Positions 21,649 to 55,381 of a stretch of DNA of 64,000 bases are shown piece after piece; position 1 is the stretch's first letter; every line of letters begins with the position of its first letter. A model generated the notes under the pieces. It ran no database searches. It was not told the origin of the DNA and worked only from the letters and a program-made list of their open reading frames with translations. A program made the position numbers and the translations under genes. Location of the stretch: the NCBI RefSeq assembly GCF_017104565.1, contig NZ_JAAGPD010000037.1:1-64000 (forward strand). Reading direction: 5' to 3'. This DNA comes from Paraburkholderia sp. Tr-20389 (GTDB taxonomy: Bacteria; Pseudomonadota; Gammaproteobacteria; Burkholderiales; Burkholderiaceae).

Positions 21649-22403
21649 TTTTTGTCTGCGACGCAGTCGCCAAGCTTTGCCTTCTCGGCGCGGGCTTTGC
21701 CGGTTTGGTTTTTTGTTTTTGGCTTTCGCTGGCATCCGCGGTTTCGCGTGCTGGCATCCGCGTTTTGCTTCTGGTTTGCTGGCGTTGCCCCTGTGCGGGG
21801 CGGCACTTACTTTCTTTGCCGCCGCAAAGAAAGTAAGCAAAGAAAGCGGGCTAACCCCGCCAGTGCTAGTGATTGCCTGCGGGCCCCCGTCAGTTCCTAC
21901 GCTTCATGCGGCAACGCGTTTGTTTGCGCCCGTTGCCAGCGTGCTAGCTGCACGCATCACCCGCTTCACATTGCCGTATCACGGCCTGCGTTACCAGACG
22001 GCCACCGCCGCCCAGGTGGCAAACTGTGTGTAGGCAGTCTCGACGTAGATGCTCCACTTCGGACTGAAAAGCGGATCGGTGTCGTAGGATCGCCAACGCA
22101 TGTGGTGCAGCAACCTACACACAGTTTGCCACCTGGGCGGCGCCGACGATTCGCTGCCGCTGGCCGGTTACGGGTGATTGGAGTGGGTGATGCGCCGGTT
22201 CAAGGCGCTGGCAACGGGCGCAAAACAAAGTGTTGTGGTGTGAAGTACGGGACCCGTTGGGGGCCCGCGTGCCGCCCCGCACAGGGGCAACGCCTGAACA
22301 CCGACATGAAAAAGCGGATGCCAGCGAAAGCGCAGAGCGAAAACCAAAAGGCGAAGCCCGCGCCGAGAAGGCAAGAACGGCGACTACGTCGCAGACAAAA
22401 AAC
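21649..22403. repeat. Long palindromic repeat element, copy 1
   Basis: A 755-bp element whose right half is an imperfect reverse complement of its left half. The ends read TTTTTGTCTGCGACG and CGTCGCAGACAAAAAA. Shared blocks in order from each end are CTTCTCGGCGCGGGCTT, GCTGGCATCCGC, GCGTTGCCCCTGTGCGGGG, a stem-loop block and GCGCCCGTTGCCAGCG. The core is at 22006-22142. The left arm keeps the hairpin at 21807-21836 (13-bp arms, 4-nt loop); the right arm has lost the equivalent of about 75 bp. It starts 10 bp after the stop of the FAD dehydrogenase gene. It is in the same orientation as copy 3 and inverted relative to copy 2. No protein coding is credible. Confidence 0.9.
22006..22142. repeat. 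Core of repeat copy 1: 29-bp inverted repeats around a conserved spacer
   Basis: Perfect 29-bp inverted arms (22006-22034 and 22114-22142) contain CCCAGGTGGCAAACTGTGTG and its complement. They enclose 79 bp that include CTGAAAAGCGG and ATCGGTGTCGTAGGA. The enclosed segment is conserved in all three copies. Confidence 0.9.
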
Positions 22404-22487
22404 CTATTTAACCGCGATATCGCGCCGCACACGCATAATGTGCTGCTCTCAACCGCTACCCCAATCCTCGCGAGGAGCAATCGCATC

Positions 22488-23495
22488 ATGAAACTGAACC
22501 GCGTGATCAGCACGGTTGAAGTGCATACGGGCGGCGAACCGTTTCGCATTGTCACCAGCGGGCTGCCGAAGATTCCCGGCAAGACCATCGTCGAGCGGCG
22601 CGCGTGGCTCAAGGAGCACGCCGATCATCTGCGCCGTGCGCTGATGCTGGAGCCGCGCGGTCACGCCGACATGTACGGCGGCTACCTGACCGATCCCGTT
22701 TCGGAAGGCGCGGACTTCGGCATCATCTTCGTCCACAACGAGGGCTACAGCGATCACTGCGGCCACGGCGTGATCGCTCTCGCGACGACAGCTGTCTCGC
22801 TCGGCTGGGTCGAGCGCACGGAGCCGGAAACGCGCGTCGGTATCGATGCGCCGTGCGGCTTCATCGAAGCGTTCGTCAAATGGGACGGCGATCACACAGG
22901 CAGCGTGCGCTTCGTCAACGTGCCGTCGTTCATCTGGCAGCGCGACGTGAGCGTCGAAACGCCGGGCTTCGGCATCGTGCGTGGCGACATTGCGTTCGGC
23001 GGTGCGTTCTATTTCTACACGTCGGGCGAGCCGTTCGGACTCGATGTGCGCGAGTCGCAAGTCGACCGGCTGATCCAGTTCGGCGCCGAAGTGAAGCGCG
23101 CGGCGAACGCGGCGTTCGAGGTCCGGCATCCGCACATTCCGGAGATCAATCACATCTACGGCACAATCATCGACAACGCGCCGCGTCATCCCGGCTCGAC
23201 GCAGGCGAACTGCTGCGTGTTCGCCGACCGCGAAGTCGACCGCTCGCCAACGGGTTCGGGCACGGCGGGCCGCGTCGCGCAACTCTATTTGCGCGGCCAG
23301 CTGGGCAAGGACGAGACGCTCGTCAACGAGTCGATCATCGGCACGGTGTTTCGCGGGCGCGTGTTGTCCGAGACGAAGCTCGATCGCTTCGACGCCGTGA
23401 TTCCCGAGATCGAAGGCAACGCGCATATTTGCGGTTTCGCAAACTGGATCGTCGATGAACGCGATCCGCTTACCTACGGTTTTCTGGTGCGCTGA
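22488..23495 (+). CDS. Trans-3-hydroxy-L-proline dehydratase (proline racemase family)
   Basis: A 335-residue enzyme of the proline racemase superfamily. The first catalytic residue is Cys91 (SDHCGHG), but the second position is Thr255 (RSPTGSG) instead of Cys. Cys/Thr pairing marks trans-3-hydroxy-L-proline dehydratases (EC 4.2.1.77) rather than racemases or 4-hydroxyproline epimerases (family knowledge). The product is pyrroline-2-carboxylate. GAGGAG lies 10 bases before the ATG at 22488. The next gene, 23 bp downstream, encodes a matching reductase, which supports the call. Confidence 0.88.
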   Translation: MKLNRVISTVEVHTGGEPFRIVTSGLPKIPGKTIVERRAWLKEHADHLRRALMLEPRGHADMYGGYLTDPVSEGADFGIIFVHNEGYSDHCGHGVIALATTAVSLGWVERTEPETRVGIDAPCGFIEAFVKWDGDHTGSVRFVNVPSFIWQRDVSVETPGFGIVRGDIAFGGAFYFYTSGEPFGLDVRESQVDRLIQFGAEVKRAANAAFEVRHPHIPEINHIYGTIIDNAPRHPGSTQANCCVFADREVDRSPTGSGTAGRVAQLYLRGQLGKDETLVNESIIGTVFRGRVLSETKLDRFDAVIPEIEGNAHICGFANWIVDERDPLTYGFLVR

Positions 23496-23518
23496 ACGCG
23501 CAAGGGAGCAGCTTCGAT

Positions 23519-24436
23519 ATGAGCAGCACGCCGATTTTCGACGCCGCCGGCACGGCGCGCCTGATTCCGTTTCGCCCGCTCGTGGACGCATTGAAGATAG
23601 CGGCCGCCGATTACGCAGCCGGACGCGTCGCGAGTCCCGAGCGGCTCGTCGTGCCGCTGAACGACAACGGCATCATGCTGTCGATGCCCGCCGCGGCCGC
23701 CGATCTCGCGATCCACAAACTCGTCAATGTCTGCCCGCGCAACGGCGAGCGCGCGCTGCCCACGATTCACGGTCAGGTGATGACGTTCGACCCGGACACG
23801 GGCAAGACGCTGTTCATTCTCGATGGTCCGACCGTCACGGGACGCCGCACGGCCGCAATGACGATGCTCGGCATCGAGACGCTGTCGCACGCCGCGCCGA
23901 AAGACATACTTCTAATCGGCGCGGGCACGCAAACGGCGAGCCATCTGCAGGCGATCGGCGAACTGTACCCGGACGCGCGCGTTCGAGTGCGCGGCACGTC
24001 GCCGGCGCGCGCGCAGGCGTTCTGCGACGCGCAGCGAGACAAGGTGCGAGCGCTCGAACCATTGAGCGACTCGACGATCCCCGATTCCGTCGATACCGTC
24101 ATCGCGCTGACGACGAGCCGTCAGGCTGTCTACGACGAAGCGCCGCGCGCGGGGCGGATCGTGATCGGCGTCGGCGCGTTCACGCCGCAGATGTGCGAGA
24201 TCGGTGCGCGCACGCTCGCGGGCAGCGCGCTATATGTCGACGATCTGGCTGGCGCGAAGCATGAAGCGGGCGATTTCATCCAGGCGGGCATCGACTGGTC
24301 GACGGTGACGGGCATCAAGGATGCCTTCTCGAACAGGCCGGCCGTCGACAGGCCCATCGTCTTCAAGACGGTCGGCTGCGCGGCGTGGGATCTGGCGGCG
24401 GGGCGCGTCGCTCGCGCTGCGCTGGGCGCGGGCTGA
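23519..24436 (+). CDS. Delta-1-pyrroline-2-carboxylate reductase (ornithine cyclodeaminase family)
   Basis: A 305-residue protein of the ornithine cyclodeaminase/mu-crystallin family. It has a substrate domain (LVVPLNDNGIMLSMPAAA) and a Rossmann NAD(P) site (ILLIGAGTQTASHLQAIGEL). Next to the dehydratase, reduction of pyrroline-2-carboxylate to L-proline (EC 1.5.1.49) is the most likely reaction. Ornithine cyclodeaminase cannot be excluded by sequence alone. A GGGAG site precedes the ATG. The pair forms a two-step route from trans-3-hydroxyproline to proline. Confidence 0.85.
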   Translation: MSSTPIFDAAGTARLIPFRPLVDALKIAAADYAAGRVASPERLVVPLNDNGIMLSMPAAAADLAIHKLVNVCPRNGERALPTIHGQVMTFDPDTGKTLFILDGPTVTGRRTAAMTMLGIETLSHAAPKDILLIGAGTQTASHLQAIGELYPDARVRVRGTSPARAQAFCDAQRDKVRALEPLSDSTIPDSVDTVIALTTSRQAVYDEAPRAGRIVIGVGAFTPQMCEIGARTLAGSALYVDDLAGAKHEAGDFIQAGIDWSTVTGIKDAFSNRPAVDRPIVFKTVGCAAWDLAAGRVARAALGAG

Positions 24437-24688
24437 GCGTTCGGCGTTGGGCGCAATCCGGGCCTTCGGATATCGATGCAACGCCGTCGATCACTACGTT
24501 TCGTCGCATGCAGGTCAGGTCGGAATCGAAACGAACGTCCGTGCCGTGTCACGTCAGCAAGCGTGCAAACAAACCGAAAACGTTGCAACATAGTCGTCTC
24601 GCGCAATCCCGCCGTTGTAAGCGCTGCCTGAAAGGGTGGCCTGGACGGGCTTGCGTTCTTCCCAGCAGTTCATTTTTGCGACCGCGCT

Positions 24689-26173
<1,485 letters not shown>

Positions 26174-26196
26174 GCCTCTGGATGCATGAGTGTGAG

Positions 26197-26228
26197 AAAG
26201 GCGAAGAGGGTGACTTCTTCGCCTTTTT
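26197..26228 (+). terminator. Intrinsic terminator of zwf
   Basis: An 11-bp stem with arms AAAGGCGAAGA and TCTTCGCCTTT and an 8-nt loop is followed by a T-run. It begins 24 bp after the zwf stop. Confidence 0.85.
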
Positions 26229-26268
26229 CGTTTTCAGACCGAGCCGCGCTCTTCAGCCGGTCGGGTAG

Positions 26269-27195
26269 TCACTCATCCGCAGCGTCGTGCAAGTGGTCGG
26301 CGAGGTAATCGATCAGCGCCCGAACCTTCGACGGAAGGAAGCGGTTAGGCGGATACAGCAGCCAGACGGGGCCCATATAGGGACGCGCCTCGAACTCCCA
26401 CTCGTCGAGAACCTGAACGAGATCGCCTTGCCGCAGCGCTTGCGCCGCGGCGAAGTCGGGCAGGCTCGCAATGCCGAAGTCCTGCAACGCTGCATCGAGA
26501 CGGGCGCCCGCATGGTTGGCGATATAACGCCCCCTCACTTCCAGCGACTGGGTTTGCGTGCCGCGCCGGAAATGCCATCGATTGTCGTCGACCGTTTCTC
26601 CCAGATACAGGCACTCGTGCCGTGCGAGATCGCGCGGCTCGGCGGGTGTCCCGTGTGCGTCGAGATAGGCCGGCGACGCACATAGCAGCCATCGCACGGT
26701 ACCGAGCCGCCGGGCAGCGAGGCCCAACGGCGGCGAGCGTGTCAGTCGAATCACAATGTCGACGTCGTCCCGCAACGGATCGACTTCGCGGTCGGCAAAC
26801 ACCAGTTGCACATCCACGTCCGGCCAGTTGCGCAGAAATCCGGGTATCAGCGGATGGATCACGGATCGCGCGAAAGCGATCGGCGCACTGACGCTGACCT
26901 TTCCTCGCGGCTCGCCGACCACTTGTCCGGCGACATCGACGGCGCCTGACGCCGCACCGACGATGTCGCGGCAATAGCGATAGACCTGCGCGCCCGAATC
27001 GGTCACCCGGACGCTGCGCGTCGAGCGCTCCAGCAGGCGCGTGCCAAGCGATTCCTCCAGGCGTTTGATCTGCCGGCTCACCGTCGACGGCGTGCTGCCC
27101 AGTTGGCGCGCGGCCTCGGAGAAATTGCCGGCATCGACCACGCGGGCAAAGGTCGCCATGTCGGGCAACAGCGCAAAAAGCTCAGTGGGGTTCAT
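26269..27195 (-). CDS. LysR-family transcriptional regulator
   Basis: A 308-residue regulator. The winged HTH lies at residues about 12-70 (FSEAARQLGSTPSTVSRQIKRLEESLGTRLLER). The substrate-binding domain follows, with the CrgA-like pattern (GKVSVSAPIAFARSVIHPLIPGFL). It is divergent from an EamA transporter and probably controls it (family habit). The 128-bp intergenic region has no perfect dyad but contains the A/T-rich stretch expected of a LysR site. The effector is unknown. Confidence 0.9.
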   Translation of the reverse strand: MNPTELFALLPDMATFARVVDAGNFSEAARQLGSTPSTVSRQIKRLEESLGTRLLERSTRSVRVTDSGAQVYRYCRDIVGAASGAVDVAGQVVGEPRGKVSVSAPIAFARSVIHPLIPGFLRNWPDVDVQLVFADREVDPLRDDVDIVIRLTRSPPLGLAARRLGTVRWLLCASPAYLDAHGTPAEPRDLARHECLYLGETVDDNRWHFRRGTQTQSLEVRGRYIANHAGARLDAALQDFGIASLPDFAAAQALRQGDLVQVLDEWEFEARPYMGPVWLLYPPNRFLPSKVRALIDYLADHLHDAADE

Positions 27196-27323
27196 TGTCG
27201 TGCTCGCATCGGTCGACGCATTTGTGCATCTCAGACATAAAAGATGTTCTCCGAGCCCCGATTATAGTTTCCGGCGCAATGCCCGATCATTCGGACTGTT
27301 CGATGAGAAAAAGGGAGTCCGAC

Positions 27324-28256
27324 GTGTCGAATCAGAAACGTTTGCTGTGGATATCCGACCTGATGTTGCTCGCGGTCGCGATGGTGTGGGGCACGAGTTA
27401 TGGGGTCGTGAAAGTCGCGCTCGCGTTCTATCCCGTTTTGGGGCTGCTCGCGCTGCGCTTTGGGCTGACCTTCATCGTGCTGTCGCCGGCATTGCGATCG
27501 CTGCGGCACGTCAAGGCTTCTGCACTCATCGGCACGTTCGGCGCGAGCGTGCTGCTGCTCGGCATCTTTCTGGCCGAGACGTTCGGGATCTCGCTGACGC
27601 GAGCGTCCAACGCCGCGTTTCTGATCAGCTTGTGTGTCGTGCTGACGCCGCTCGTCGAATGGGCGCTGCTGCGCAGAAAGCCGTTGCCTGTCGAGTGGAT
27701 CGCCGTCGGATTGTCGCTGGCGGGTGCTGCTCTAGTGAGCGGCGGCGTGTTCATTCCGACGGCCGGCGATGCGTTGATTCTGCTCGCTGCGCTGCTCCGC
27801 GCATTGATGGTATGCGTGACCAAACGTGTGATGCGCGACCCGGCGCTCGCGCCGCTGTCGGTGACGGCGGTTCAGGCGGGCACCGTCGCGCTCGGCAGTC
27901 TCGTCGTCGCGCTGGTGTGGCCGTCCGGGCAATGGCGTGCACTGCCGTCGCTCGCCGGGCATGGCGTCTTCTGGATGAGCATCGGCTACCTGGTGATTGC
28001 CTGCACGCTGTTCGCATTCTTCGCGCAGAACTTCGCCGTCAAGCGCAGCAGCCCGACACGCGTGGCGCTATTGATGGGAAGCGAACCGGCGTTCGGCGCG
28101 CTGTTCGCGTACGCGTGGCTCGGGGAGCATCTTTCGATGTCGGGCTGGGTCGGAGGCGGCTTGATGGTGTCAGCCTCCGTGCTCGCAACAGTGCCCTGGC
28201 AAAAGCGTACAAGCGCTTCGGTCGACGTGCATGCGGCTGTCGCGAGTGACGCCTGA
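27324..28256 (+). CDS. EamA/DMT-superfamily transporter
   Basis: A 310-residue, roughly 10-helix inner-membrane exporter made of two repeated EamA domains. Features are MVWGTSYGVVKVALAFYPVL in the first helix pair and SEPAFGALFAYAWLGEHLS near the end. I place the start at GTG 27324 because GGGAG lies 6 bases upstream; ATG 27303 is an in-frame alternative. Members export amino acids or metabolites. The substrate is not deducible. It is divergently paired with a LysR regulator. Confidence 0.88.
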   Translation: MSNQKRLLWISDLMLLAVAMVWGTSYGVVKVALAFYPVLGLLALRFGLTFIVLSPALRSLRHVKASALIGTFGASVLLLGIFLAETFGISLTRASNAAFLISLCVVLTPLVEWALLRRKPLPVEWIAVGLSLAGAALVSGGVFIPTAGDALILLAALLRALMVCVTKRVMRDPALAPLSVTAVQAGTVALGSLVVALVWPSGQWRALPSLAGHGVFWMSIGYLVIACTLFAFFAQNFAVKRSSPTRVALLMGSEPAFGALFAYAWLGEHLSMSGWVGGGLMVSASVLATVPWQKRTSASVDVHAAVASDA

Positions 28257-28369
28257 CGGCGCGCAAAAAGGCATTGCCGACTGGCATCGCATGCCTCGTA
28301 TCGAGCGCCGACGATCCGCGCGACATCGACGACGCCGCGTCGCCGTTCGCGCCGGGTCAAACGGCGCGC

Positions 28370-29455
28370 TCAGAACACATCCACCCGCCCCGGAAAGGTC
28401 TCTTCGTAAGCCGCCGCCGCATCACCTTCAACGGGCGTGCCGCCGCGCTGCTCCCTGAACATCACGGGCGGCATGCCGAATTCCTTGCGAAACTCGCGCC
28501 CAAGATGTGATGCGTCGGAGAATCCGCAGCTCGAAGCGATGTCCGCCACCGTCCGGTCCGAACTCGTCAGCAACCACGCAGCCGTTCTCAAGCGAACCTG
28601 TTTCGCAAACGCCTGCGGGCTCTTCCCCGTCTCCGCCTTGAACAGCCGCTCCAGCTGACGCGGCGACAAATCCAGCTTGCAAGCGAGTTCTTCCAACGGC
28701 AGCGTGCGCCCGACATGCTGCTCCATCAACAGGATCGCGCGCTTGACCTTCGGATGCGTCGCCGGCTCCAGCCCCGGCGGATGCGGCTGCGGCGCGTTGC
28801 CTTTCTGCATTTCGCCGACGAGCAGAATCCGCAGCGCCTTCTGCACCGTCGCCGTCTCGAAGTGCCGCAGCAGGATCGCTGCCGCCACGTCGATCGAAGC
28901 CCGTCCGCCCGAGCACGTAATGCGTCGCCGGTCGATCACGAACAGCCGGTCCGCGACCAGCGAGTCCGAATTGACGGCAGGGAAGCGTTCGACGAAATCC
29001 CAGTAGTGAAACCAGCTGACGCAAATCCGGTGCGCGTCGAGCACGCCCGCGCGCATCAGCGCGAACACGCCTGTGCAGATGCCGACCAGCGTTGCGCTCT
29101 TGCGCGCAGCGTCGCGGATGAACTGCAGCGTTTCGTCGCTTGCCTGCGGCCCCGAATGCAGCAGCCCGCCGACGACGACCACGTAGTCGAACGGCTCGGC
29201 ATCGGCGAAGGTTTCCCACGGTGTGATCTGGATGCCGCAACTCGCGCGCACGGGCGCGAGCGTGTCGCCAATCACGCTCCACGAGCAGCGCACCGGCTTG
29301 CTGTAGTCGCCTTCGTCGGCGGAAAGACGCAGCATGTCGACGAAGCCCGAGAACGCCGTCAGCGTGAAGTTCGGCAGCAGGATGATGCCGAAGCGGATGC
29401 GCTCTTTGGGCAGCGCGTCGATGGAAGTCAGCGGTAGTGAATCAACGATGGTCAT
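28370..29455 (-). CDS. GlxA-type AraC regulator, GbdR/SouR-like
   Basis: A 361-residue regulator. The N-terminal DJ-1/PfpI-like (amidotransferase-fold) domain, about 15-200, contains FGIILLPNFTLTAFSGFVD and VGICTGVFALMRAGVL with a Cys at the nucleophile elbow. The C-terminal AraC double HTH (about 245-340) has LACKLDLSPRQLERLFKAETGKSPQ and SSCGFSDASHLGREFRKEFG. This architecture is that of GbdR and SouR, which sense glycine betaine, dimethylglycine or sarcosine. Divergent placement next to sdaA-soxBDAG makes control of sarcosine and serine catabolism likely. The ATG at 29455 is preferred; the frame extends to 29497. Confidence 0.85.
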   Translation of the reverse strand: MTIVDSLPLTSIDALPKERIRFGIILLPNFTLTAFSGFVDMLRLSADEGDYSKPVRCSWSVIGDTLAPVRASCGIQITPWETFADAEPFDYVVVVGGLLHSGPQASDETLQFIRDAARKSATLVGICTGVFALMRAGVLDAHRICVSWFHYWDFVERFPAVNSDSLVADRLFVIDRRRITCSGGRASIDVAAAILLRHFETATVQKALRILLVGEMQKGNAPQPHPPGLEPATHPKVKRAILLMEQHVGRTLPLEELACKLDLSPRQLERLFKAETGKSPQAFAKQVRLRTAAWLLTSSDRTVADIASSCGFSDASHLGREFRKEFGMPPVMFREQRGGTPVEGDAAAAYEETFPGRVDVF

Positions 29456-31187: not shown

Positions 31188-31224
31188 TGGAAACCAGCAA
31201 GGCAACGACGAAGGGGTCTGCACG

Positions 31225-32469: not shown

Positions 32470-32492
32470 ACGCGCGCAACTGCGTTGCATGG

Positions 32493-32527: not shown

Positions 32528-32544
32528 GACACTGGAGAAACACA

Positions 32545-36938: not shown

Positions 36939-36947
36939 GGGCGCCCT

Positions 36948-37214
36948 ATGTCGCGTGCGCAGACGTCCGAGTTGCTCAGGCGCGCGTATGAGTCGGGCGA
37001 TGTGCGTGCCGCCGTTGCTCTGTTAGATCAGAGTATCGCGTTGGGGCATCGCAAGATTGCGTTGATCCGGTATTTGCAGGCGCAGCATCTCGATGCGCCG
37101 CTCGATGCCAGGCATCATGAGTATGTTCGCGATGTCGCTGCGAGGATGAGTCCTCGCACGTTGGCTAGAGTTGTTGGGGAGGCTCGTGCCAGGGCTGGCA
37201 GGCGGGACGGGTAG
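36948..37214 (+). CDS. Small conserved-type hypothetical protein at the end of the sox operon
   Basis: An 88-residue basic, helical protein beginning SRAQTSELLRRAYESGDVR and rich in Arg, Ala and His. I recognise no family. It starts 9 bp after folB and has codon use like its neighbours, so it is probably the last gene of the operon. Repeat copy 2 begins 6 bp after its stop. The function may relate to sarcosine oxidase assembly or regulation, but nothing in the sequence proves this. Confidence 0.65.
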   Translation: MSRAQTSELLRRAYESGDVRAAVALLDQSIALGHRKIALIRYLQAQHLDAPLDARHHEYVRDVAARMSPRTLARVVGEARARAGRRDG

Positions 37215-37220
37215 AGTTTG

Positions 37221-38008
37221 CTTTTTGTCTGCGACGCTAGTCGTCATTCTTGCCTTCTCGGCGCGGGCTTCGCCTTTTGGTTTTCGCTCTGCGCTTTTGC
37301 TGGCATCCGCTTTTTCATGTCGGTGTTCATGCGTTGCCCCTGTGCGGGGCGGCACTTACTTTCTTTGCCGCCGCAAAGAAAGTAAGCAAAGAAAGCGGGC
37401 TAACCCCGCCAGCCCGTGTTCCTGCCTGCGGGCCCCCAACGGGTCCCGCACTCCACACGGCAATACTTTGTTTTGCGCCCGTTGCCAGCGCCTCGAACCG
37501 GCGCATCACCCACTCCAGTCACCCGTAGCGCACCGAGCGGCAGCGACCCGTCTGCGCCACCCAGGTGGCAAACTGTGTGTAGGTTATTGCACTGCATGCG
37601 TTCGCGCTCCTACGACACCGATCCCGCTTTTCAGCCCGGAGTGGTGCACTTCGATCGCGACGGCCTACACACAGTTTGCCACCTGGGCGGCCGTGGATGT
37701 CTGGTAACGCGGTCCGTGACGCGGGAGTGTGAAGCGGGTGATGCGTGAGTTAGCACGCTGGCAACGCGCGCGAACAAGCACGTTGCCGCGTGAAGTGTAA
37801 GAACTGTTGGGGGCCCGCAGGCAATAACTAGCATTGGCGGTGTTAGCCCGCTTTCTTTGCTTACTTTCTTTGCGGCGGCAAAGAAAGTAAGTGCCGCCCC
37901 GCACAGGGGCAACGCATGAACTACCAACACCAAAACGCGGATGCCAGCACGCGAAACCGCGGATGCCAGCAAAGAAAACCCAGAATGGCGACTGCGTCGC
38001 AGAAAAAA
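37221..38008. repeat. Long palindromic repeat element, copy 2 (inverted orientation)
   Basis: A 788-bp element and the most complete copy. The ends are TTTTTGTCTGCGACG and CGTCGCAGAAAAAAA. Both arms carry the TTACTTTCTTTGC/GCAAAGAAAGTAA hairpin followed by the GCGGGCTAACCCCGCCA block and its complement. The arm with two GCTGGCATCCGC units lies on the right here, but on the left in copies 1 and 3, so this copy is inverted. The core is at 37559-37686. It fills the whole gap between two convergent genes: 6 bp after the small sox-operon gene and 4 bp before the stop of the LysR gene. Confidence 0.9.
37559..37686. repeat. Core of repeat copy 2
   Basis: 24-bp perfect inverted arms (37559-37582 and 37663-37686) flank 80 bp. 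On the minus strand this spacer reads CTGAAAAGCGGGATCGGTGT and continues to GCATGCAGTGCAATAA. This is nearly identical to copy 3 read on the plus strand. Confidence 0.9.
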
Positions 38009-38012
38009 AGCA

Positions 38013-38972
38013 TCACGCCGCATGCAAGCGGCCCTGCATCAACATCCTGACCCGTGACAAATCCGCCTCGACATGCCCCTGATGTTCGAACAGCTCAGCG
38101 AGCCAATCCACGAAGGCTCTGACCCGCGGCGACACACGCCGCCCCTTCACATAAGCAACCGAAACAGACATCGGCACCGGCTTCCACTGCGGCAAAACCT
38201 CACGTAACAAGCCCTTGTCGAGCAGAGCTTGCGCAGCAATGCGTGCAGGCTGGATCAACCCAAGCCCCTGCAACCCGCAGGTCAAATACGCATGCTCGTC
38301 GCTGACCTTGATGAAGCCATTCACCTTCACGGTCAACGGACTGCCGCCGACATCGAAGTCGAAGTCGACCGCGCGCCCCGTTAGCGCCGACATGCAGTTC
38401 ACGGCAACATGTCCCGACAGGTCATCGAGACTTTCAGGCATCCCGTATCGTTCAAGATAAGCAGGACTCGCACACGTCACGTGCTCCAGCGTCCCGAGCC
38501 GCTTCGCAGCCAGGCCCGAATCGGGCAACTCGCCCAGCTGGATACTGCAATCCACCGCTTCGCCGACCAGATCGACGTTGCGATGACTCACGCCGATCGC
38601 GAGATCGATCGACGGATAGCGCTCGTGAAAATCATCGAGCGCAGGCAGCACGATCGAAGTCGCAACGGCGCCCGGCATTTCGACGCGCAGACGTCCGCTC
38701 GGATTGTCGAGCGTCTGGCGCAGCGTCGCTTCCATCTCGTCGATATCGGCGAGAATCTGCGCGCAACGCTCGTAATAGGCCGCGCCTTCCGGCGTGAGAC
38801 TCAGACGCCGCGTCGTGCGCACGAGCAGCGTCGTGCCGAGCAGCGCTTCCAGGTTCTGCACAATGGTGGTTGCCGTCGCGCGCGGAATTTCCAGCGACTC
38901 CGCCGCGCGGGTGAAGCTGTTGGTATCGACGATACGCATGAACGTGCGCATCGCCTGAATACGGTCGATCAC
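38013..38972 (-). CDS. LysR-family transcriptional regulator
   Basis: A 319-residue regulator. Its N-terminal winged HTH has FTRAAESLEIPRATATTIVQNLEALLGTTLLVR. The CrgA-like effector domain starts with GRLRVEMPGAVATSIVLPAL. The start is GTG at 38972 with AGGAGAG at good spacing. It reads away from the alcohol dehydrogenase gene upstream (same strand, 187-bp gap) and its stop abuts repeat copy 2. The target genes are not evident. Confidence 0.9.
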   Translation of the reverse strand: MIDRIQAMRTFMRIVDTNSFTRAAESLEIPRATATTIVQNLEALLGTTLLVRTTRRLSLTPEGAAYYERCAQILADIDEMEATLRQTLDNPSGRLRVEMPGAVATSIVLPALDDFHERYPSIDLAIGVSHRNVDLVGEAVDCSIQLGELPDSGLAAKRLGTLEHVTCASPAYLERYGMPESLDDLSGHVAVNCMSALTGRAVDFDFDVGGSPLTVKVNGFIKVSDEHAYLTCGLQGLGLIQPARIAAQALLDKGLLREVLPQWKPVPMSVSVAYVKGRRVSPRVRAFVDWLAELFEHQGHVEADLSRVRMLMQGRLHAA

Positions 38973-39017
38973 GGAACTCTCCTGTTGAAGACAAACCAGC
39001 AGAAAACACCGCGGCGT

Positions 39018-39040
39018 GCGCCGTCATGAGGTGACGGCGC
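39018..39040 (-). terminator. Hairpin downstream of the alcohol dehydrogenase gene
   Basis: A 9-bp perfect stem (GCGCCGTCA/TGACGGCGC) with a 5-nt loop. On the minus strand a TTTT run follows about 10 nt later. Plausible but imperfect terminator, 120 bp after the dehydrogenase stop. Confidence 0.45.
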
Positions 39041-39159
39041 GCCGGTACTGCAAACGCAATGACTGATGCGAGGCGGGAAGCAGGGACAGGCCGCCGTCCT
39101 GCACGGCCTGGAAGGAGGGGGTGAAGCGCGAATCTGGTCCTGTTGGGTCCTGCTGCCCG

Positions 39160-40212
39160 TTACTTGCGGAGCGAGTCGAGATCGATGACGAAGCGGTACT
39201 TCACATCGCTCTTCAACATGCGCTCATATGCTTCATTGATCTGCTGCATCTGGATCATCTCGATGTCCGAGGTGATGCCGTGCTTGCCGCAGAAGTCCAG
39301 CATTTCCTGTGTCTCCGCAATGCCGCCGATCAGCGACCCCGCCAGACGGCGGCGCTTCATGATCAGGTTGAACACCTGCGGCGACGGATGGTCGTGTTCC
39401 GGCGCCCCCACCAGCGTCAGCGTGCCGTCACGCTTCAGCAGGTTGATGAACGGATTCAGATCGTGCTGCGCGGCAACCGTGTTGACGATCAGATCGAAGC
39501 TGTTCACATGCGCTTCCATCTCCGCCGGGTTCTTCGAGATCACCACTTCGTCCGCACCGAGACGCTTTGCATCTTCGATCTTCGATGCCGACGTCGTGAA
39601 CAGCACGACGTGCGCGCCCATCGCATGCGCGAGCTTCACGCCCATGTGGCCGAGGCCGCCCAGACCGACGATGCCGACCTTCTTGCCGGGACCCGCGCCC
39701 CACGTGCGCAGCGGCGAATAGAGCGTGATGCCCGCGCACAGCAGCGGCGCGACGCCCGCTGGATCGAGGTTCTCCGGCACGCGCAGCACGAAGTCTTCAT
39801 CGACGACGAGTTGCGTCGAATAGCCGCCGTACGTCACGGCGCCCGTCTGACGGTCGTTGCCGTTGTACGTGCCGACGAAGCCGTTCTCGCAATACTGTTC
39901 GAGACCTTCCTGGCAGCTCGGGCAGGTGCGGCACGAATCGACCAGACAGCCGACGCCGACCAGTTGGCCCACCTTGTATTTCGTCACCTGCGACCCGACG
40001 TTCGTCACGCGGCCGACGATCTCATGGCCGGGCACAACCGGGAAAATCGTGTTCTTCCATTCGTTGCGTGCCTGATGCAGGTCCGAATGACAGACGCCGC
40101 AAAACAGGACTTCCATCTGTACATCGTGTTCGCGTAGATCGCGACGCTGAAATTCGAACGGCGCGAGTTTCGATTGAGCGTCGGTTGCGGCATAGGCGTA
40201 GGTCGTGGTCAT
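39160..40212 (-). CDS. Zinc-dependent NAD(P)-alcohol dehydrogenase, YahK/CAD type
   Basis: A 350-residue medium-chain dehydrogenase. The catalytic zinc site includes Cys41 (GVCHSDLH) and His63-Glu64 (PGHE). Structural zinc cysteines are Cys94, 97, 100 and 108. The Rossmann motif is GIVGLGGLGHMGVKLAHAMG. Such enzymes reduce a broad range of aldehydes with NADPH. GGAG precedes the ATG at 40212. It is divergent from a YqhC-like AraC regulator, an arrangement known for aldehyde-responsive yqhC-yqhD in enterobacteria, so aldehyde detoxification is likely. Confidence 0.93.
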   Translation of the reverse strand: MTTTYAYAATDAQSKLAPFEFQRRDLREHDVQMEVLFCGVCHSDLHQARNEWKNTIFPVVPGHEIVGRVTNVGSQVTKYKVGQLVGVGCLVDSCRTCPSCQEGLEQYCENGFVGTYNGNDRQTGAVTYGGYSTQLVVDEDFVLRVPENLDPAGVAPLLCAGITLYSPLRTWGAGPGKKVGIVGLGGLGHMGVKLAHAMGAHVVLFTTSASKIEDAKRLGADEVVISKNPAEMEAHVNSFDLIVNTVAAQHDLNPFINLLKRDGTLTLVGAPEHDHPSPQVFNLIMKRRRLAGSLIGGIAETQEMLDFCGKHGITSDIEMIQMQQINEAYERMLKSDVKYRFVIDLDSLRK

Positions 40213-40589
40213 GAATGCTCCAGCTCGATAGTGCAATTGCGCGAGTCGCCGCGCGGTCTGTAAGCGACCTGCAAGCGCGGCGGGTGAATCTGTCGTGCGC
40301 CGTGGCGCGCGGGATGTCCGGCGTGAGAACCGTCCGTGGAGCGCAAAACGCGCGATGCAGGGCAACGCGCAGCGCGGATGCCTCGTGCGAGGCGATGGAC
40401 GGGTGTCGCGGACAGGAAGCGGGCTTTGCGACAGGGTTCCCATGTTAGGGACCGGGCGTGGCCCAGGGAATACCTGAACGTCTTGAAGGTTTGCCTAATT
40501 CTCCTGGCGGCCTCCGCGATAGACCATTTAATGCTAGATTTCAAGCCATATTCTCTGGCCCCGCATGGTTTCGCCAAATGGATTTCATC
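40213..40589. other. 377-bp divergent control region
   Basis: This lies between the alcohol dehydrogenase and the AraC regulator. No gene is supported. The stretch 40480-40570 is relatively A/T-rich and probably holds the AraC-family sites and promoters. I saw no strong dyad or RNA structure. Confidence 0.5.
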
Positions 40590-41576
40590 ATGTCCGACAC
40601 AAAACATTCACATGGCGCGCCGCTCGCGGCGCGCACGCCCCAGCAGCGCATGGTCGAACTGCTGCGCACGCTTGCGCCCGCCGAGGGCATGACGGATGCG
40701 CCGCTCGAAGGCGTCAAGTTTCTGCGCGCGAATCATCCGATGCCGCGCCGCCCGGTGATGTACGAGCCGAGCATCGTCATTGTCTGTCAGGGGCGCAAGC
40801 GCGGCTATCTGGGCGAGCAGTCGTATATCTACGACGCGCAGCAGTATCTCGTGCTGTCCGTGCCGCTGCCGTTCGAATGCGAGACGGAAGCGAGCATCGA
40901 CGAGCCGTTTCTCGGCATTTCGATTCGCGTCGATCTGACGATGGTGGCCGAACTGCTGATGCTGCTCAACGAGACGCACGGCGCCGTCGACAGCGAGCCG
41001 CGCGGCATCTACTCGACGCCGCTCGACGAGCCGCTCGGCGATGCTGTGTTGCGTCTGCTCGAAGCGCTGGTGTCGCCGTTCGATGCGCGCATTCTCGCGC
41101 CGTCGATCGTGCGCGAGATCTGCTATCGCGTGCTGACGGGCGTGCAGGGCGACGCGATTCGAGCGGCACTCACGCATCAGCATCATTTCGGGCGCATCGC
41201 GAAGGCGCTGCGGCGCATTCATACGGAGTACGACGGCGATCTCGATGTCGAAACGCTCGCGCGCGAATCGGGCATGAGCCTCGCCGTGTTTCATGCGCAG
41301 TTCAAGAACGTCACCTCCACTTCACCGATGCAGTACGTGAAGACCACGCGCCTGCATCACGCGCGTCTGCTGATGGTTCAGGACGGGCTGAATGCGAGCG
41401 CGGCGGCGGCGCGCGTCGGCTACGAAAGCGCGTCGCAGTTCAGCCGCGAGTTCAAGCGCCTGTTCGGCTTGAGCCCCGTCGATGAAGTCAAGCGCATGCG
41501 CGGTACGCTCGACCCAGTCGTGCCGCCGCCTCAGCGCCCCGTCACGGCCGCGCGCAAGTACGTGACGACGAACTGA
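40590..41576 (+). CDS. AraC-family regulator with AraC_N domain (YqhC-like)
   Basis: A 328-residue regulator. The N-terminal AraC_N cupin-like domain (about 45-200) contains YEPSIVIVCQGRKRGYLGEQ and QYLVLSVPLPFECETEAS. The C-terminal double HTH has TLARESGMSLAVFHAQFKNV and ARVGYESASQFSREFKRLFG. This is the YqhC architecture; YqhC activates an adjacent aldehyde reductase gene in response to reactive aldehydes. The ATG at 40590 is preferred over 40578; neither has a strong ribosome binding site. Confidence 0.9.
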   Translation: MSDTKHSHGAPLAARTPQQRMVELLRTLAPAEGMTDAPLEGVKFLRANHPMPRRPVMYEPSIVIVCQGRKRGYLGEQSYIYDAQQYLVLSVPLPFECETEASIDEPFLGISIRVDLTMVAELLMLLNETHGAVDSEPRGIYSTPLDEPLGDAVLRLLEALVSPFDARILAPSIVREICYRVLTGVQGDAIRAALTHQHHFGRIAKALRRIHTEYDGDLDVETLARESGMSLAVFHAQFKNVTSTSPMQYVKTTRLHHARLLMVQDGLNASAAAARVGYESASQFSREFKRLFGLSPVDEVKRMRGTLDPVVPPPQRPVTAARKYVTTN

Positions 41577-41607
41577 AGCCTCGTATCGCGCGTGCCCTGT
41601 GGTGCTG

Positions 41608-42000
41608 TCATGCAGGGTCGTGACAGCACACGCAAAGCTTGTTGCCGTCGGGATCGCGAAAGTACGCGCCGTAGTAGTTCGCGTGATATTCGGGGCGCAG
41701 CCCCGGCGGCCCTTCGCAGGCGGCGCCCTGTGCGAGCGCCGTTGCGTGCACGCGATCGACGGTGAGGCGGTCCGCTGCCAGCAGCGCGACCATTGGGCCG
41801 TTGCCCGGCACGGCAGGCTGACCGTCGAACGGCCTGCCGACGAGAAACAGCGGCCGCGCGATACCGGGCTTCATCCATCCTGCCCACGGCCTGTCGTCTT
41901 CGCGGAACTTCAAAGCGAGCCCTAGCTCGGCGAGTAACGTCGAATAGAAATCAAACGCCTGCTCGAAATCGTTGACGCCGATAAACACGTGGGAAAGCAT
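41608..42000 (-). CDS. VOC (glyoxalase/bleomycin-resistance fold) protein
   Basis: A 130-residue single VOC protein. It has the family start LSHVFIGVNDFEQAFDFYSTLL, and the C-terminal metal-site pattern YGAYFRDPDGNKLCVCCHD carries a Glu-to-Asn-type change at the usual Glu position and an extra cysteine cluster. An AAGGAG site lies 9 bases before the ATG. The substrate is unknown. It is convergent with the AraC gene and divergent from the next VOC gene. Confidence 0.88.
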   Translation of the reverse strand: MLSHVFIGVNDFEQAFDFYSTLLAELGLALKFREDDRPWAGWMKPGIARPLFLVGRPFDGQPAVPGNGPMVALLAADRLTVDRVHATALAQGAACEGPPGLRPEYHANYYGAYFRDPDGNKLCVCCHDPA

Positions 42001-42146
42001 CGAATGCGGCTCCTTGTCAGACGGAAACGTAAAGGCGGGTAACGCCGATACCAGCATGATTGCTGATCTGGCTACGCATGTGCGTCGTGGCTACGATGAT
42101 CGCGCTGTCGACTCACGTCACTTCAACCACATTGCGGAGCCCGTTC

Positions 42147-42473
42147 ATGAAGCGCTTTCACATTGCATTGGCCGTTGCGAACCTCGACGCATCGATCGAC
42201 GACTACAGCCGCCGTCTCGGCCAGCCGCCGTCGGCGGTCGTGCCGGGGCAGTACGCAATGTGGCGCACCGACCTGCTCAACTTTTCGATCAATGAAAAGC
42301 CGGAAAAAGCAGGGCAGTTGCGGCACGTCGGTTTCGAGGACGACACAGTCGAAGGCTATTCGAGCAGCATCGACGTGAACGGGCTCGAATGGGAGCTGTT
42401 TTCCGCGGCGGAGCAGGACAGGCGCATCGTCGATACGTATGGCGTGCCTGTGCATGTGCCTCTGAAGAACTGA
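42147..42473 (+). CDS. Small VOC-family protein
   Basis: A 108-residue VOC protein starting KRFHIALAVANLDASIDDYSRRLG, with GGAG 6 bases upstream. It ends in ELFSAAEQDRRIVDTYG. The family often includes arsenic or aromatic-metabolism proteins, but no assignment is possible here. The frame extends upstream to 42060 without a family match. It stands between the first VOC gene (divergent) and the GGDEF gene (convergent). Confidence 0.8.
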   Translation: MKRFHIALAVANLDASIDDYSRRLGQPPSAVVPGQYAMWRTDLLNFSINEKPEKAGQLRHVGFEDDTVEGYSSSIDVNGLEWELFSAAEQDRRIVDTYGVPVHVPLKN

Positions 42474-42503
42474 GCATGCCGCGCGCCATGCGGAGAGGAC
42501 CGC

Positions 42504-43976
42504 TCACTTCTGCGCGCTGCCTGCTTCCTGCGACGTGTAGTGCGCGCGCTTTTCCTCGTACATCAGCAGGTCGGCGCGCTGCACGCCTGCTTCGATGCGT
42601 TCGCCACGTTGCACCGTCGCCATGCCCATCGAGAAGCTGATTGGCGAGCCCGGATAGAACTGGTTGTTCAGATCGACCAGCTGGCGGATCGTCTCGATCA
42701 TCGCTGCGCCGCCGCGCTCGTCGGTGCCGGGCAACAGGATCGCGAACTCGTCGCCGCCGATGCGCGCCGCGTTGAAGGGTGTTTCCATCGCCTTCGCGAG
42801 CACTTCGCCGGCGCGGCGCAGCAGTGCATCGCCCGCCGCGTGACCGAGCTGGTCGTTGACGCGCTTCAGGCCATTGAGGTCGGCCATCACGACCGTCACG
42901 GGGAACGGCCCTTTGCGCTCCAGCCGGTTGAGTTCATCGACGTAGAACGAACGGTTGCGCAGCTTGGTCAGCACGTCGTGCTTGCCGAGAAACTCCAGAT
43001 ACGCTTCGGCCTTCTTGCGTGCGGTGATGTCGGTGAGCGCGACGAGCACGAGATCCCAGTTGCGTTCGTGGCCGGGCAGCACCGAGAACTGCAGGTGCAC
43101 GTGCACCTCGTTGGCTTCGAGCGAATAGTTGAGCACTTCGCGCTGCTGGAAGAGCTTGCCGTCCCACAGATCGATCAGCTGCTCGCGGAAATGCGGGCGC
43201 ATGTCGTCGCGGAAGACTTCGGGCAGGCGGCCGAGCAGCGTTTTTTTGTCGGGGGCGGCGAACATGTCCAGCGTGTGCTGGTTGACGTCGAGCACATGAA
43301 TCTCCGCCATGCAGCGCTCGACGAATTCCGGATGGACGTCGGTGAAGGTGCGGAAATCCGTGATGCCGGCGGCGCGGGCCTCGTCGAGCAGCCGTTTGAC
43401 GGCGCTGAAATCTTCGACCCACAGCGATACGGGCGAGTATTCGAACAGCCCGCGCACGTATTGTTCGGCCGTTGTCACGCGATGGCGAGCGCCTTCCAGT
43501 TCGGTGATGTCTTCCGTCGACACCAGCACGCGGTCCCAGCGCTCTTCGTGGCCGGGCAGGACCTGGCCTTTGAGGAGCACGTCGAGACGCCGGCCGCCGA
43601 GCGTGTAGTTGACTGTCTGGCTGGTGAAGTGTTGCTGGCCGGACCACAGCTGGCAGAGTTCTTCGAGGTGGGTGATCAGCATGTCGTCGCGGAAGACGGC
43701 TGACAGGTTGTCTGTCAGCGTGCTGAAATCTGCGGCTTCGAATTGGCTGAGTGTTTTCTGGTTGACCTTGATGACGCGGATGCGGCTTGCGCATTCGGCT
43801 ACGCGGGTTACGTCGTTACCGACGTGAGCGCGTAGATCCGTCACGCCTTGGGAGCGCCAGTCTTCGAATAGCGCTTTTACCCCGCTGAAGTCTTCGAGCC
43901 ACAGCGCCACGGGCGCGAGATCGAACATTTCCTGATCGTCGGAGGTGGGGCTGCGCGGGCTGGTTGGGGTGGGCAT
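42504..43976 (-). CDS. Diguanylate cyclase with two tandem PAS-like domains
   Basis: A 490-residue cytosolic protein without TM segments. Two closely similar sensor domains (about 15-165 and 180-325) share the pattern PV-LW-EDFS-VK, FRDDM, VNYTL or LNYSL, and VLPGHE-RWD or RNWD. They look like an internal duplication. The GGDEF domain (about 335-485) has DVLTKLRNRSFYV and an intact GGDEF, so c-di-GMP synthesis is expected. No RxxD inhibitory site precedes GGDEF. The ATG at 43976 is used; a TTG at 43991 is in frame. It is convergent with the VOC gene. Confidence 0.92.
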   Translation of the reverse strand: MPTPTSPRSPTSDDQEMFDLAPVALWLEDFSGVKALFEDWRSQGVTDLRAHVGNDVTRVAECASRIRVIKVNQKTLSQFEAADFSTLTDNLSAVFRDDMLITHLEELCQLWSGQQHFTSQTVNYTLGGRRLDVLLKGQVLPGHEERWDRVLVSTEDITELEGARHRVTTAEQYVRGLFEYSPVSLWVEDFSAVKRLLDEARAAGITDFRTFTDVHPEFVERCMAEIHVLDVNQHTLDMFAAPDKKTLLGRLPEVFRDDMRPHFREQLIDLWDGKLFQQREVLNYSLEANEVHVHLQFSVLPGHERNWDLVLVALTDITARKKAEAYLEFLGKHDVLTKLRNRSFYVDELNRLERKGPFPVTVVMADLNGLKRVNDQLGHAAGDALLRRAGEVLAKAMETPFNAARIGGDEFAILLPGTDERGGAAMIETIRQLVDLNNQFYPGSPISFSMGMATVQRGERIEAGVQRADLLMYEEKRAHYTSQEAGSAQK

Positions 43977-44060
43977 CACGGACGGGTCCAAAGTCTGTTT
44001 TCTCGCTATTTTACGGTGCCATGTGGCAATGGAGAAAATTCGACGTCGTTGTTTGAGTTG

Positions 44061-44824
44061 CCGGTTTTGCTGGCATCCGGGTATGCGCGTGCGCTGGCAT
44101 CCGCGTTTTGCCTTCGTACTTCACGCGTTGCCCCTGTGCGGGGCGGCACCTACTTTTCTTTGCAGCGGCAAAGAAAAGTAGGCAAAAGAAAGCCGCTCAC
44201 ACCGCCAGCCCGTGTTCTTGCCTGCGGGTCCCCAGCGGGTCCCGCACCCCACGCGGCAACGCGCTTGTTTGCGCCCGTTGCCAGCGTGCTAACTCACGCA
44301 TAACCCACTTCACATGCCCGCGTCATGGCCCGCATTACCAGGAAGTCCACGGCAGCCCAGGTGGCAAACTGTGTGTCGGCCATCGCGATGCAAGTGCACC
44401 ACTCCGGACTGAAAAGCGGGATCGGTGTCGTAGGAGCGCGAACGCATGCAGTGCAATAACCTACACACAGTTTGCCACCTGGGCGGCGGTGACGGGTCGC
44501 TGCCGCTGGCTGCCTGCGGGTGACTGGAGCGGGTTGTGCGCCTGTTCGAGGCGCTGGCAACGGGCGCAAAACAATGTGTTGCCGTGTGGAGTGCGGGACC
44601 CGTTGGGGGCCCGCAGGCAAGAACAAGGATTGGCGGTGTGAGCGGCTTTCTTTTGCCTACTTTTCTTTGCCGCTGCAAAGAAAAGTAGGTGCCGCCCCGC
44701 ACAGGGGCGACGCATGAACCACGAAGGCAAACCGCGGATGCCAGCGAAAGCGGCAGAGCCAAAGCCCAACCGGCGAAGCCCACACCGAGAAGGCAAGAAC
44801 GTCGACTGCGTCGCAGACAAAAAA
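44061..44824. repeat. Long palindromic repeat element, copy 3
   Basis: About 764 bp. The right end is intact (CGTCGCAGACAAAAAA); the left end is eroded and its exact border is uncertain. The hairpins differ from copies 1 and 2: CCTACTTTTCTTTGC with GCAAAGAAAAGTAGG, present in both arms. The adjoining block reads AGCCGCTCACACCGCCA on one arm and its complement on the other. The core is at 44356-44483. The element lies between the start of the GGDEF gene and the stop of the receptor gene, ending 5 bp before that stop codon. Confidence 0.88.
44356..44483. repeat. Core of repeat copy 3, with a short open frame
   Basis: 21-bp inverted arms, extendable on the right (CCCAGGTGGCAAACTGTGTGT and complement), flank about 86 bp. 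Within it, 44388-44459 is an ATG-to-TAA frame of 23 codons ending IGVVGARTHAVQ, exactly up to the right arm. It has no clear ribosome binding site. Confidence 0.88.
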
Positions 44825-55361: not shown

Positions 55362-55381
55362 TCGCTGGATCGTAGAGCTGA

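What the first reader, a model, noticed from the sequence alone, without database searches (positions are those of the whole stretch)
21649..44824. Three copies of a long palindromic element with a conserved core
Copies at 21649-22403, 37221-38008 and 44061-44824 share TTTTTGTCTGCGACG-type ends. Their blocks (CTTCTCGGCGCGGGCTT, GCTGGCATCCGC, GCGTTGCCCCTGTGCGGGG, GCGCCCGTTGCCAGCG) occur in mirrored order in both arms. The cores have 21-29-bp inverted repeats around about 80 bp. Each copy could fold into one giant hairpin. There is no transposase and no credible protein. I do not recognise a named family. It may be a non-autonomous mobile element, a structured RNA or a chromosome-organising sequence.
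Basis: seen in the sequence. Interest (0 to 1): 0.8.

Follow-up and report, generated by a model that had tools for sequence, protein, structure and literature searches.

The report
Giant hairpin repeats behind bacterial genes
About a hundred DNA repeats, each able to fold into one long hairpin, sit behind the stop codons of genes in this Paraburkholderia genome; copies within a genome stay alike while the set changes from species to species, so they look like two-way transcription stoppers kept similar by copying between sites.

Summary
The three copies (21649-22402, 37221-38009, 44065-44824) are quasi-palindromes, 83-89% alike over the longest shared pieces, folding at z = -19 to -29. This 9.0-Mb genome has about 117 copies. 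A 20-mer of the outer module is exact in 101 of 118 genus genomes; interiors differ between clades.

Three results define it. (1) Of 77 copies checked, 39 lie between convergent, 35 between tandem and 1 between divergent genes (2 one-sided); 80 of 115 inward stop codons lie 52-164 bp from the module. (2) Both arms face incoming transcription with a GC hairpin and T-rich tail: 142 of 154 directions, against 13 of 80 shuffled. (3) Copies evolve in concert: same-site copies of related species ranked first in only 2 of 14 pairs, although sites persist.

Best reading: bidirectional 3'-end/termination elements, REP/BIME-like in kind, homogenised by ectopic recombination. No partner transposase or credible protein was found; no target duplication was seen at the one clean junction. 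Rfam sRNA family RF02421 is a piece of the arm. Termination and conversion are inferred, not shown.

The parts
21649..22402 (-). copy 1 of the quasi-palindromic element (reverse to copy 2); about 73 bp of the right-arm module deleted
37221..38009 (+). copy 2, full length (reference copy)
44065..44824 (-). copy 3 (reverse to copy 2); left end lacks TTTTTGTCTGCGACG
37221..37327 (+). left outer arm of copy 2; 6 bp separate it from the TAG (37212-37214) of a short + ORF. In 77 copies the 80 nt before the module, read inward, are T 39, G 31, C 23, A 6 percent
37333..37353 (+). inward-facing terminator-like hairpin GTTGCCCC-TGTGC-GGGGCGGC followed by ACTTACTTTC, left arm of copy 2
37893..37913 (-). 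inward-facing terminator-like hairpin, right arm of copy 2
37355..37386 (+). nested small palindrome TTACTTTCTTTGC-CGCC-GCAAAGAAAGTAA, left arm (partner 37860-37891)
37860..37891 (+). nested small palindrome, right arm
37560..37580 (+). core inverted-repeat arm, left, of copy 2 (copy 1: 22011-22031; copy 3: 44356-44376)
37667..37687 (+). core inverted-repeat arm, right, of copy 2 (copy 1: 22117-22137; copy 3: 44463-44483)
37584..37663 (+). non-palindromic loop of about 80 bp between the core arms of copy 2
21784..21804 (+). left-arm GC hairpin of copy 1
44127..44147 (+). left-arm GC hairpin of copy 3 (right arm variant at 44691-44708)

Best explanation
The three copies belong to a genus-wide family of extragenic quasi-palindromes, roughly 0.5-0.8 kb long. 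They sit at the 3' ends of genes and most likely work as bidirectional 3'-end elements: a transcript entering from either flank meets, about 100-125 nt after its stop codon, a GC-rich hairpin with a T-rich tail and then a very long stem, so transcription stops (or the RNA end is protected) before it runs antisense into the neighbour. Over evolution the copies of one genome behave as one population: sites persist, while the sequence at those sites is overwritten from other copies by ectopic recombination (gene conversion), so each clade carries its own version and an alternative interior can take over many sites (G364). SHOWN: family, anatomy, copy number, placement, conserved inward hairpins, site sharing, lack of same-site similarity. 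INFERRED: termination activity, gene conversion as the cause, and breakage or template switching at hairpins as its trigger.
For: Placement: 39 convergent, 35 tandem, 1 divergent and 2 one-sided of 77 copies. A second gene caller gives 38, 30 and 2 of 70 copies with genes on both sides, against 11, 23 and 11 of 45 neighbouring gene pairs of the window by the same caller; Fisher p 5e-4 for fewer divergent, 2e-3 for more convergent sites. 80 of 115 inward stop codons lie 52-164 bp from the module; outward start codons are spread (37 sides, median 219 bp). Inward terminator-like hairpin in 142 of 154 directions, 140 of the 156 sites found lying 80-159 nt from the entry end; 13 of 80 shuffled and 6 of 80 flank directions. 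Around copy 2, 6 terminator-like sites against 1.4 +/- 1.2 in shuffles. The module holding this hairpin is what is shared across the genus while interiors differ. Concerted evolution: in 14 same-site pairs a copy is 0.75-0.86 identical to paralogs of its own genome, and 0.67-0.76 to same-site partners in the ten pairs between clades; the partner ranks first in 2 of 14 (G299-G329, G322-G353), and 6th and 4th of 10 in the two own-G310 pairs. Sites persist: 4 of 5 own sites on the 123-kb contig are occupied in G299. G364 carries another interior at all three window sites; 40 places match that interior there (40 scored of 185 candidates), against 4 in G310, 1 in G000, 0 in nine others.
Against: The T tract is weak (ACTTACTTTCTTTG). 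No expression data. The hairpin is an inherited shared sequence, so the 154 directions are not independent. The caller favours the nearer ORF end, which can inflate 'stop' calls (one search is the check). Same-site copies would also look unlike each other if elements were repeatedly lost and re-inserted at the same preferred 3' ends; outer arms carry no same-site signal either, so this is not excluded. Own and G310 copies differ hardly more between (0.83) than within (0.84, 0.88) genomes. Only about 117 loci of a 9-Mb genome carry an element, so it is no general terminator. Annotated records gave no gene table for an independent check of placement. Site sharing rests on about a dozen sites in one syntenic region; 77 of about 117 copies were analysed; the relatives paired in the rank test were represented by 5-11 copies each.
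Confidence: 0.5

Rival explanations
1. A non-autonomous mobile element (MITE- or REPIN-like) moved in trans by an unidentified enzyme that prefers gene 3' ends; clade-specific versions reflect repeated bursts and turnover.
For: High dispersed copy number; occupied and empty orthologous sites, for example 8 bp between two convergent stop codons in G310 where G299 holds a 768-bp element and an 80-bp gap in G356 at the copy-2 site; inverted-repeat anatomy; low-copy relatives in another genus.
Against: No target duplication seen by eye at the one clean junction (G299/G310; the other comparisons do not align cleanly); ends fade into variable T/A-rich repeats; the only Y1_Tnp match in the genome scores 26.6 bits and no module lies in the 1.4 kb read around it; no element with a transposase of its own among those fetched, the long ones examined holding what read as insertion sequences; 4 of 5 own sites are also occupied in G299, more than random re-insertion would give.
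Confidence: 0.3
2. A family of trans-acting small RNAs or a structured RNA whose fold is the selected feature.
For: Outer arm plus module resembles Rfam RF02421 (Bp1_684), 26.0 bits in copy 2 and up to 41.3 in relatives' elements, gathering score 44; that candidate is listed as RT-PCR validated in Burkholderia pseudomallei (passages of PMC3521395).
Against: Arms of a copy pair no better with each other than with arms of other copies in the module, inner arm and core (.888 v .883.776 v .777.879 v .886); the mid part (.827 v .822) and the outer ends show a slight excess. The alignment-based consensus fold is much weaker (-222) than the fold of the consensus sequence (-612). No sigma-70-like promoter site around copy 2. 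Over a hundred copies is odd for a trans-acting sRNA gene.
Confidence: 0.1
3. A chromosome-organising or protein-binding sequence (nucleoid protein, segregation or replication site).
For: The core arms are strongly conserved among copies, and the distance between them is nearly constant, about 110 bp, in most listed pairs (one listed pair, on C54, is 133 bp apart).
Against: Orientation does not follow the replichores on G329 C1: 8+/14- and 16+/14- among the 52 copies listed there (172 hits in the genome, listing capped), Fisher p 0.27; best-arc permutation p 0.115. The interior differs between species. Placement follows gene ends.
Confidence: 0.08
4. Decayed protein genes or a known annotated repeat or insertion-sequence family.
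For: Mechanical ORFs cross the copies.
Against: 13 of 15 plasmid or chromid matches have no annotated feature under them, weak evidence because the two records opened have almost no gene table; no Rfam hit at gathering level in the window copies. That scarcity of A on the entering strand leaves few stop codons and so opens frames is inference. No test of codon-level selection was run.
Confidence: 0.02

Closest known systems
REP / BIME / REPIN sequences (Enterobacteria, Pseudomonas)
   Same: High-copy extragenic palindromes, mostly between convergent or tandem genes, downstream of coding regions, many close to stop codons (abstract and passages of PMC3733652; passages of PMC12306157).
   Different: REPs are 20-40 bp, most with a GTAG or CGTC tag, GTAG ones with RAYT transposases; these are 0.5-0.8 kb compound palindromes, no partner RAYT found, interior replaced between clades.
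Rfam RF02421 Bp1_684 (Burkholderia sRNA candidate Bp1_Cand684_SIPHT)
   Same: Same sequence as the outer arm with its GC hairpin (alignments).
   Different: Rfam models a 113-nt RNA; here it is one arm of a palindrome in high copy. In another genus of the family (g12) three of four stretches fetched show it as inverted pairs with 278-299-bp arms at 91-97% identity (one pair over 2 kb apart) and one (L332) is solitary.
MITEs
   Same: Non-coding, inverted-repeat ends, dispersed, occupied and empty sites.
   Different: No target duplication seen at the one clean junction, no parent transposon found, longer than typical (recalled), ends not sharp.
Bidirectional intrinsic terminators
   Same: Inverted hairpins with T-rich tails serving convergent genes.
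   Different: Weak T tract, two hairpins about 500 bp apart, repeated sequence shared by over 100 loci.

Membership tests
REP / REPIN (GTAG or CGTC class) | unit of 20-40 bp | tested here: not met
   consensus about 790 bp from 77 copies
REP / REPIN (GTAG or CGTC class) | unpaired GTAG or CGTC tag at one end | not tested
   no scan for tags was run; the ends (TTTTTTGTCTGCGACG) pair with each other in the consensus fold
REP / REPIN (GTAG or CGTC class) | RAYT/TnpA-REP gene flanked by the repeat | tested here: not met
   one Y1_Tnp match of 26.6 bits in this genome; no module in the 1.4 kb read around it. Relatives were not searched for Y1_Tnp
REP / REPIN (GTAG or CGTC class) | between convergent or tandem genes | tested here: met
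   39 convergent, 35 tandem, 1 divergent, 2 one-sided of 77; 38, 30, 2 of 70
MITE | terminal inverted repeats | tested here: met
MITE | target-site duplication | tested here: inconclusive
   none seen by eye at the one clean occupied/empty pair (G299/G310); two further pairs and the copy-2 site against G356 do not align cleanly at the junctions
MITE | related autonomous transposon | tested here: inconclusive
   none seen in fetched copies; long copies hold what read as insertion sequences; not an exhaustive search
Intrinsic terminator | GC-rich hairpin followed by a T tract | tested here: inconclusive
   hairpin in 142 of 154 directions; at least 5 T in 8 bases but interrupted
Intrinsic terminator | stops transcription | not testable with these tools
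   needs RNA data
Rfam RF02421 | score at or above gathering (44 bits) | tested here: not met
   window copy 2: 26.0 bits; none at gathering in the window. Elsewhere in the genome 29 matches at E<=0.001 among 42 scored of 1250 candidates, one above gathering (C57:699-812, 47.0 bits), where no inverted partner was seen

The most novel reading that the evidence does not exclude
More than a hundred scattered loci of one bacterial genome form a single recombining population: long quasi-palindromes break or stall replication, repair copies the interior from another locus, and a new interior type can thereby sweep through the sites of a genome (as type B appears to have done at 40 or more places in G364) while the sites stay put. 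The element is at once a gene-end device and a self-spreading conversion sequence that needs no transposase.
Probability: 0.27. Interest if true: 0.82.

Novelty: new variant of a known kind. Interest (0 to 1): 0.62.

Why it matters
Long palindromes are held to be hard for bacteria to keep (recalled), yet here over a hundred quasi-palindromes of near-kilobase length stand in one genome. If the reading is right, they give a natural system for genome-wide concerted evolution in bacteria and for gene-end insulation in high-GC genomes. They also recast a Rfam 'sRNA' family as part of a repeat.

Tried and rejected
Segmental duplication of three copies: rejected, about 117 copies. Compensatory pairing as proof of a selected hairpin: not found in module, inner arm and core, slight excess in the mid part and outer ends. 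RAYT partner: not supported in this genome. Replichore-directed orientation: not supported. Same-site signal in the outer arms: none overall. Canonical SbcD as policing nuclease: three matches, none above the curated cut-off, best 52.4 bits, in a 370-aa ORF that reads as an SbcD-like phosphoesterase (SbcC was not searched; absence of SbcCD is not proven). Long copies as autonomous elements: ORFs listed for two of them (L189, L192) and sequence seen for L190, L194 (ends) and G353 read as insertion sequences (the family names IS481-, IS3- and IS4-like are my own reading, no database result). Rho-site idea for the A/C-rich exit arm: composition only, left open. Annotated-context check: records empty. 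Phage records: no match. Paper searches for such an element (by listing only) and for its sequence strings (0 papers) showed no description of it; only the held open-licence library was searched. Searches looked for REP and palindrome/conversion papers (listings; one paper then opened for passages). My notebook calls the gene before copy 2 'AraC-like'; that label was untested and is withdrawn: it is a short ORF ending at 37214. The notebook's 'about 35 species' with an element upstream of lysR is replaced by the count.
Full report
OBSERVATION. The three copies are real. As single strands (DNA parameters) they fold at -319.7 (copy 2), -292.7 (copy 1) and -335.8 kcal/mol (copy 3) against shuffle means of -158.1, -161.7 and -168.1, with 0 of 20 shuffles as low each time. 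The majority consensus of 77 copies folds into an almost unbroken hairpin (-612, RNA parameters), but the alignment-based consensus fold is far weaker (-222) and leaves the outer ends unpaired.

COPY NUMBER AND RANGE. The window lies in a 9.0-Mb draft genome of 129 contigs. A core-arm pattern gives 233 hits and 0 in the control, so about 117 copies. In one search, 40 of 159 candidates were scored and 40 places match. In 299 genomes of the family only this genome has the core-arm pattern with at most 1 mismatch, but that even draw missed the close relatives: full-length relatives at 76-86% occur in G310, G364, G323, G299, G376, G353, G322 and G329 and weaker ones (about 70%) in G301, G311 and G356 (118 genomes, four candidates scored in each; 103 have some match). 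The outer module 20-mer is exact in 101 of 118 genus genomes, with 1 to 479 hits each. Only some genomes' places were listed; there it stands mostly as inverted pairs at a spacing typical for the genome (465-469 in G120, 450-453 in G307, 468-469 in G345; by subtraction), with single hits and longer spacings as well (G377, G270). In another genus of the family (g12) three of four fetched stretches show inverted pairs with 278-299-bp arms at 91-97% (one pair over 2 kb apart) and one a solitary arm. Plasmid and chromid records: 15 with a match, ten Paraburkholderia and five Caballeronia; phages none.

ANATOMY. From outside in: variable T-rich end with GCTGGCATCCGC blocks in this clade; GC hairpin GTTGCCCCTGTGCGGGGCGGC with ACTTACTTTC; nested small palindrome; interior arm; core arm; loop of about 80 bp; then the mirror image. 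Read inward, the 80 nt before the module hold only 6% A. Terminator-like hairpins of at least 7 pairs face inward in 142 of 154 directions over 77 copies; of the 156 sites found 140 lie 80-159 nt from the entry end. Shuffled elements give 13 of 80 directions and left flanks 6 of 80 (controls from the first 40 of the 77 copies; the shuffle keeps dinucleotides only approximately).

PLACEMENT. Of 77 copies, 39 lie between two inward-pointing genes, 35 between tandem genes, 1 between divergent genes and 2 had a gene called on one side only (this caller favours the nearer ORF end). A coarser caller gave 38 convergent, 30 tandem and 2 divergent of 70 copies with genes on both sides, against 11, 23 and 11 of the 45 neighbour pairs of the window (the window's own copies are in that background); Fisher p 5e-4 for divergent and 2e-3 for convergent. 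Inward stop codons lie at a median of 124 bp from the module, 80 of 115 between 52 and 164 bp; 35 lie further off, up to 1281 bp. Start codons facing away are spread (37 sides, median 219 bp). In the window: copy 1 starts 10 bp after the stop codon of an FAD-dependent oxidoreductase gene (20298-21638; Pfam DAO); copy 2 is separated by 6 bp from a short ORF ending at 37214 and by 3 bp from the stop of a LysR-type gene on the other strand (38013-38972); copy 3 ends 5 bp from the stop of a periplasmic-binding-protein gene (44830-45996).

SITES. Ten relatives were compared. At the copy-2 site, type-A elements stand in G299, G329, G323 and G353 (there split by what reads as an insertion sequence); G364 has the same outer modules with another interior; G310, G322, G376 and G301 have other DNA and G356 an 80-bp gap. 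At the copy-1 site elements stand in G310, G364, G322, G353 and G356. At the copy-3 site the right-hand flank was not found beside it in any of the ten; G310 and G364 have an element there. Over the 123-kb contig, 4 of 5 own sites are occupied in G299: three by full elements, one (21649) by a 387-bp part with the right flank 8.8 kb away; the fifth (44045) is the breakpoint. In G310, of the three own sites that map there, two are occupied and one (37222) is not; 69566 and 83252 have no counterpart in the stretch fetched. Empty sites: G310 has 8 bp (CGTTTTCT) between the stop codons of two convergent open frames, and G299 has a 768-bp element filling the space between the same two stops. G299 has a 75-bp gap where G310 has an element, and this genome has 157 bp where G310's element begins directly after a TGA; these two do not align cleanly. 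Which state is older is unknown. One search fetched 78 named loci around relatives of the LysR gene: in 30 of 78 an inverted module pair lies upstream, its inner module 111-249 bp before lysR, in 6 a single module lies there, in 2 (L228, L232) the module lies on the other side, in 40 none was seen, five of these with under 800 nt to look at. Five upstream elements were read; they begin at or shortly after the stop codon of the gene before lysR, in P. xenovorans LB400 (L238) an alcohol-dehydrogenase-like ORF by my reading of the translation.

CONCERTED EVOLUTION. Mean identity in the 650-bp core is 0.84 within this genome, 0.83 to G310, 0.74-0.76 to G299, G322, G323, G329, G353 and G376. For 14 same-site pairs the same-site partner ranks first only for G299-G329 (of 6) and G322-G353 (of 5); in the two own-G310 pairs it ranks 6th and 4th of 10. 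Third codon positions of the LysR gene are 0.60-0.73 identical to the relatives tested, so elements change more slowly than silent sites yet forget their site. Against a simple conversion story: outer arms too lack same-site signal (mean score 28.8 against 27.8), which repeated re-insertion would also give; own and G310 differ hardly more between than within. Type B: 40 places in G364 (40 scored of 185 candidates), 4 in G310, 1 in G000, none in nine others (at most 40 candidates scored each).

STRUCTURE TEST. Left and right arms of one copy pair no better than arms of different copies in the module (.888 v .883, p .22), inner arm (.776 v .777, p .76) and core (.879 v .886, p .9975); the outer ends (.651 v .621.702 v .661) do, 0 of 2000 permutations, and the mid part marginally (.827 v .822, p .04). 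So the hairpin is a property of the family sequence; its fine pairing is not maintained copy by copy in the inner parts.

MECHANISM. Placement directly after stop codons, depletion between divergent genes, and an inward hairpin within the most widely shared part favour a bidirectional 3'-end role. Homogenisation with site persistence favours ectopic conversion; hairpin breakage or template switching as the trigger is inference. No SbcD above the curated cut-off was found in the genome, a weaker SbcD-like protein was.

KNOWN KINDS. The closest kind is REP/BIME: extragenic, palindromic, downstream of genes (PMC3733652, abstract and passages; PMC12306157, passages). Size, missing RAYT partner and interior turnover set it apart. 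Rfam RF02421 is a piece of the arm: up to 41.3 bits in fetched elements, gathering 44; 29 matches in this genome, one above gathering, among 42 scored of 1250 candidates; 18 of 75 family genomes have a match. Paper searches listed no description of the element; most subscription papers are not in that library.

The count at the lysR site, the target-duplication row (now inconclusive), the statement on listed places, the gap before copy 2 and the description of the rank test were mended.

Noticed in passing
window 55380-55460 (-): Rfam RF02871 ncS54 Burkholderia sRNA, 50.6 bits.
   Followed up: no
Rfam RF02421 matches in L199, L193, L202 and others; L330, L331, L333: The Rfam sRNA family Bp1_684 looks like one arm of this repeat; in another genus it appears as low-copy inverted pairs.
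   Followed up: partly
L189, L190, L192, L194 (G377) and the copy-2 site of G353: What read as insertion sequences sit inside these elements; in L190, L192 and L194 they stand at the apex of the small module palindrome and the usual interior is absent at the ends seen.
   Followed up: partly
G000 contig C19 (991 kb): One core-arm pair is listed on this long contig while far shorter contigs carry several (listing cut at C54); may be a replicon difference or an assembly effect.
   Followed up: no
copy-2 site of G299, G323, G329; L244: Element ends and one interior carry short tandem repeats such as (GCAAAAA)n, (CCCAAAA)n and (GCTGAAG)n that differ between species.
   Followed up: no
window 44065-44824, right side: The copy-3 site is a synteny breakpoint against the ten relatives compared, as if recombination between copies had rearranged the genome.
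   Followed up: partly
G000:C12:60223-60513 (L156): Single Y1_Tnp (RAYT-like) match in a 237-aa frame with what looks like a degenerate HUH motif (my reading) and no element beside it.
   Followed up: partly
L238-L302 (30 of 78 loci): A site upstream of lysR holds an element in 30 named Paraburkholderia or Burkholderia records, with module spacing from 358 to 775 bp.
   Followed up: partly
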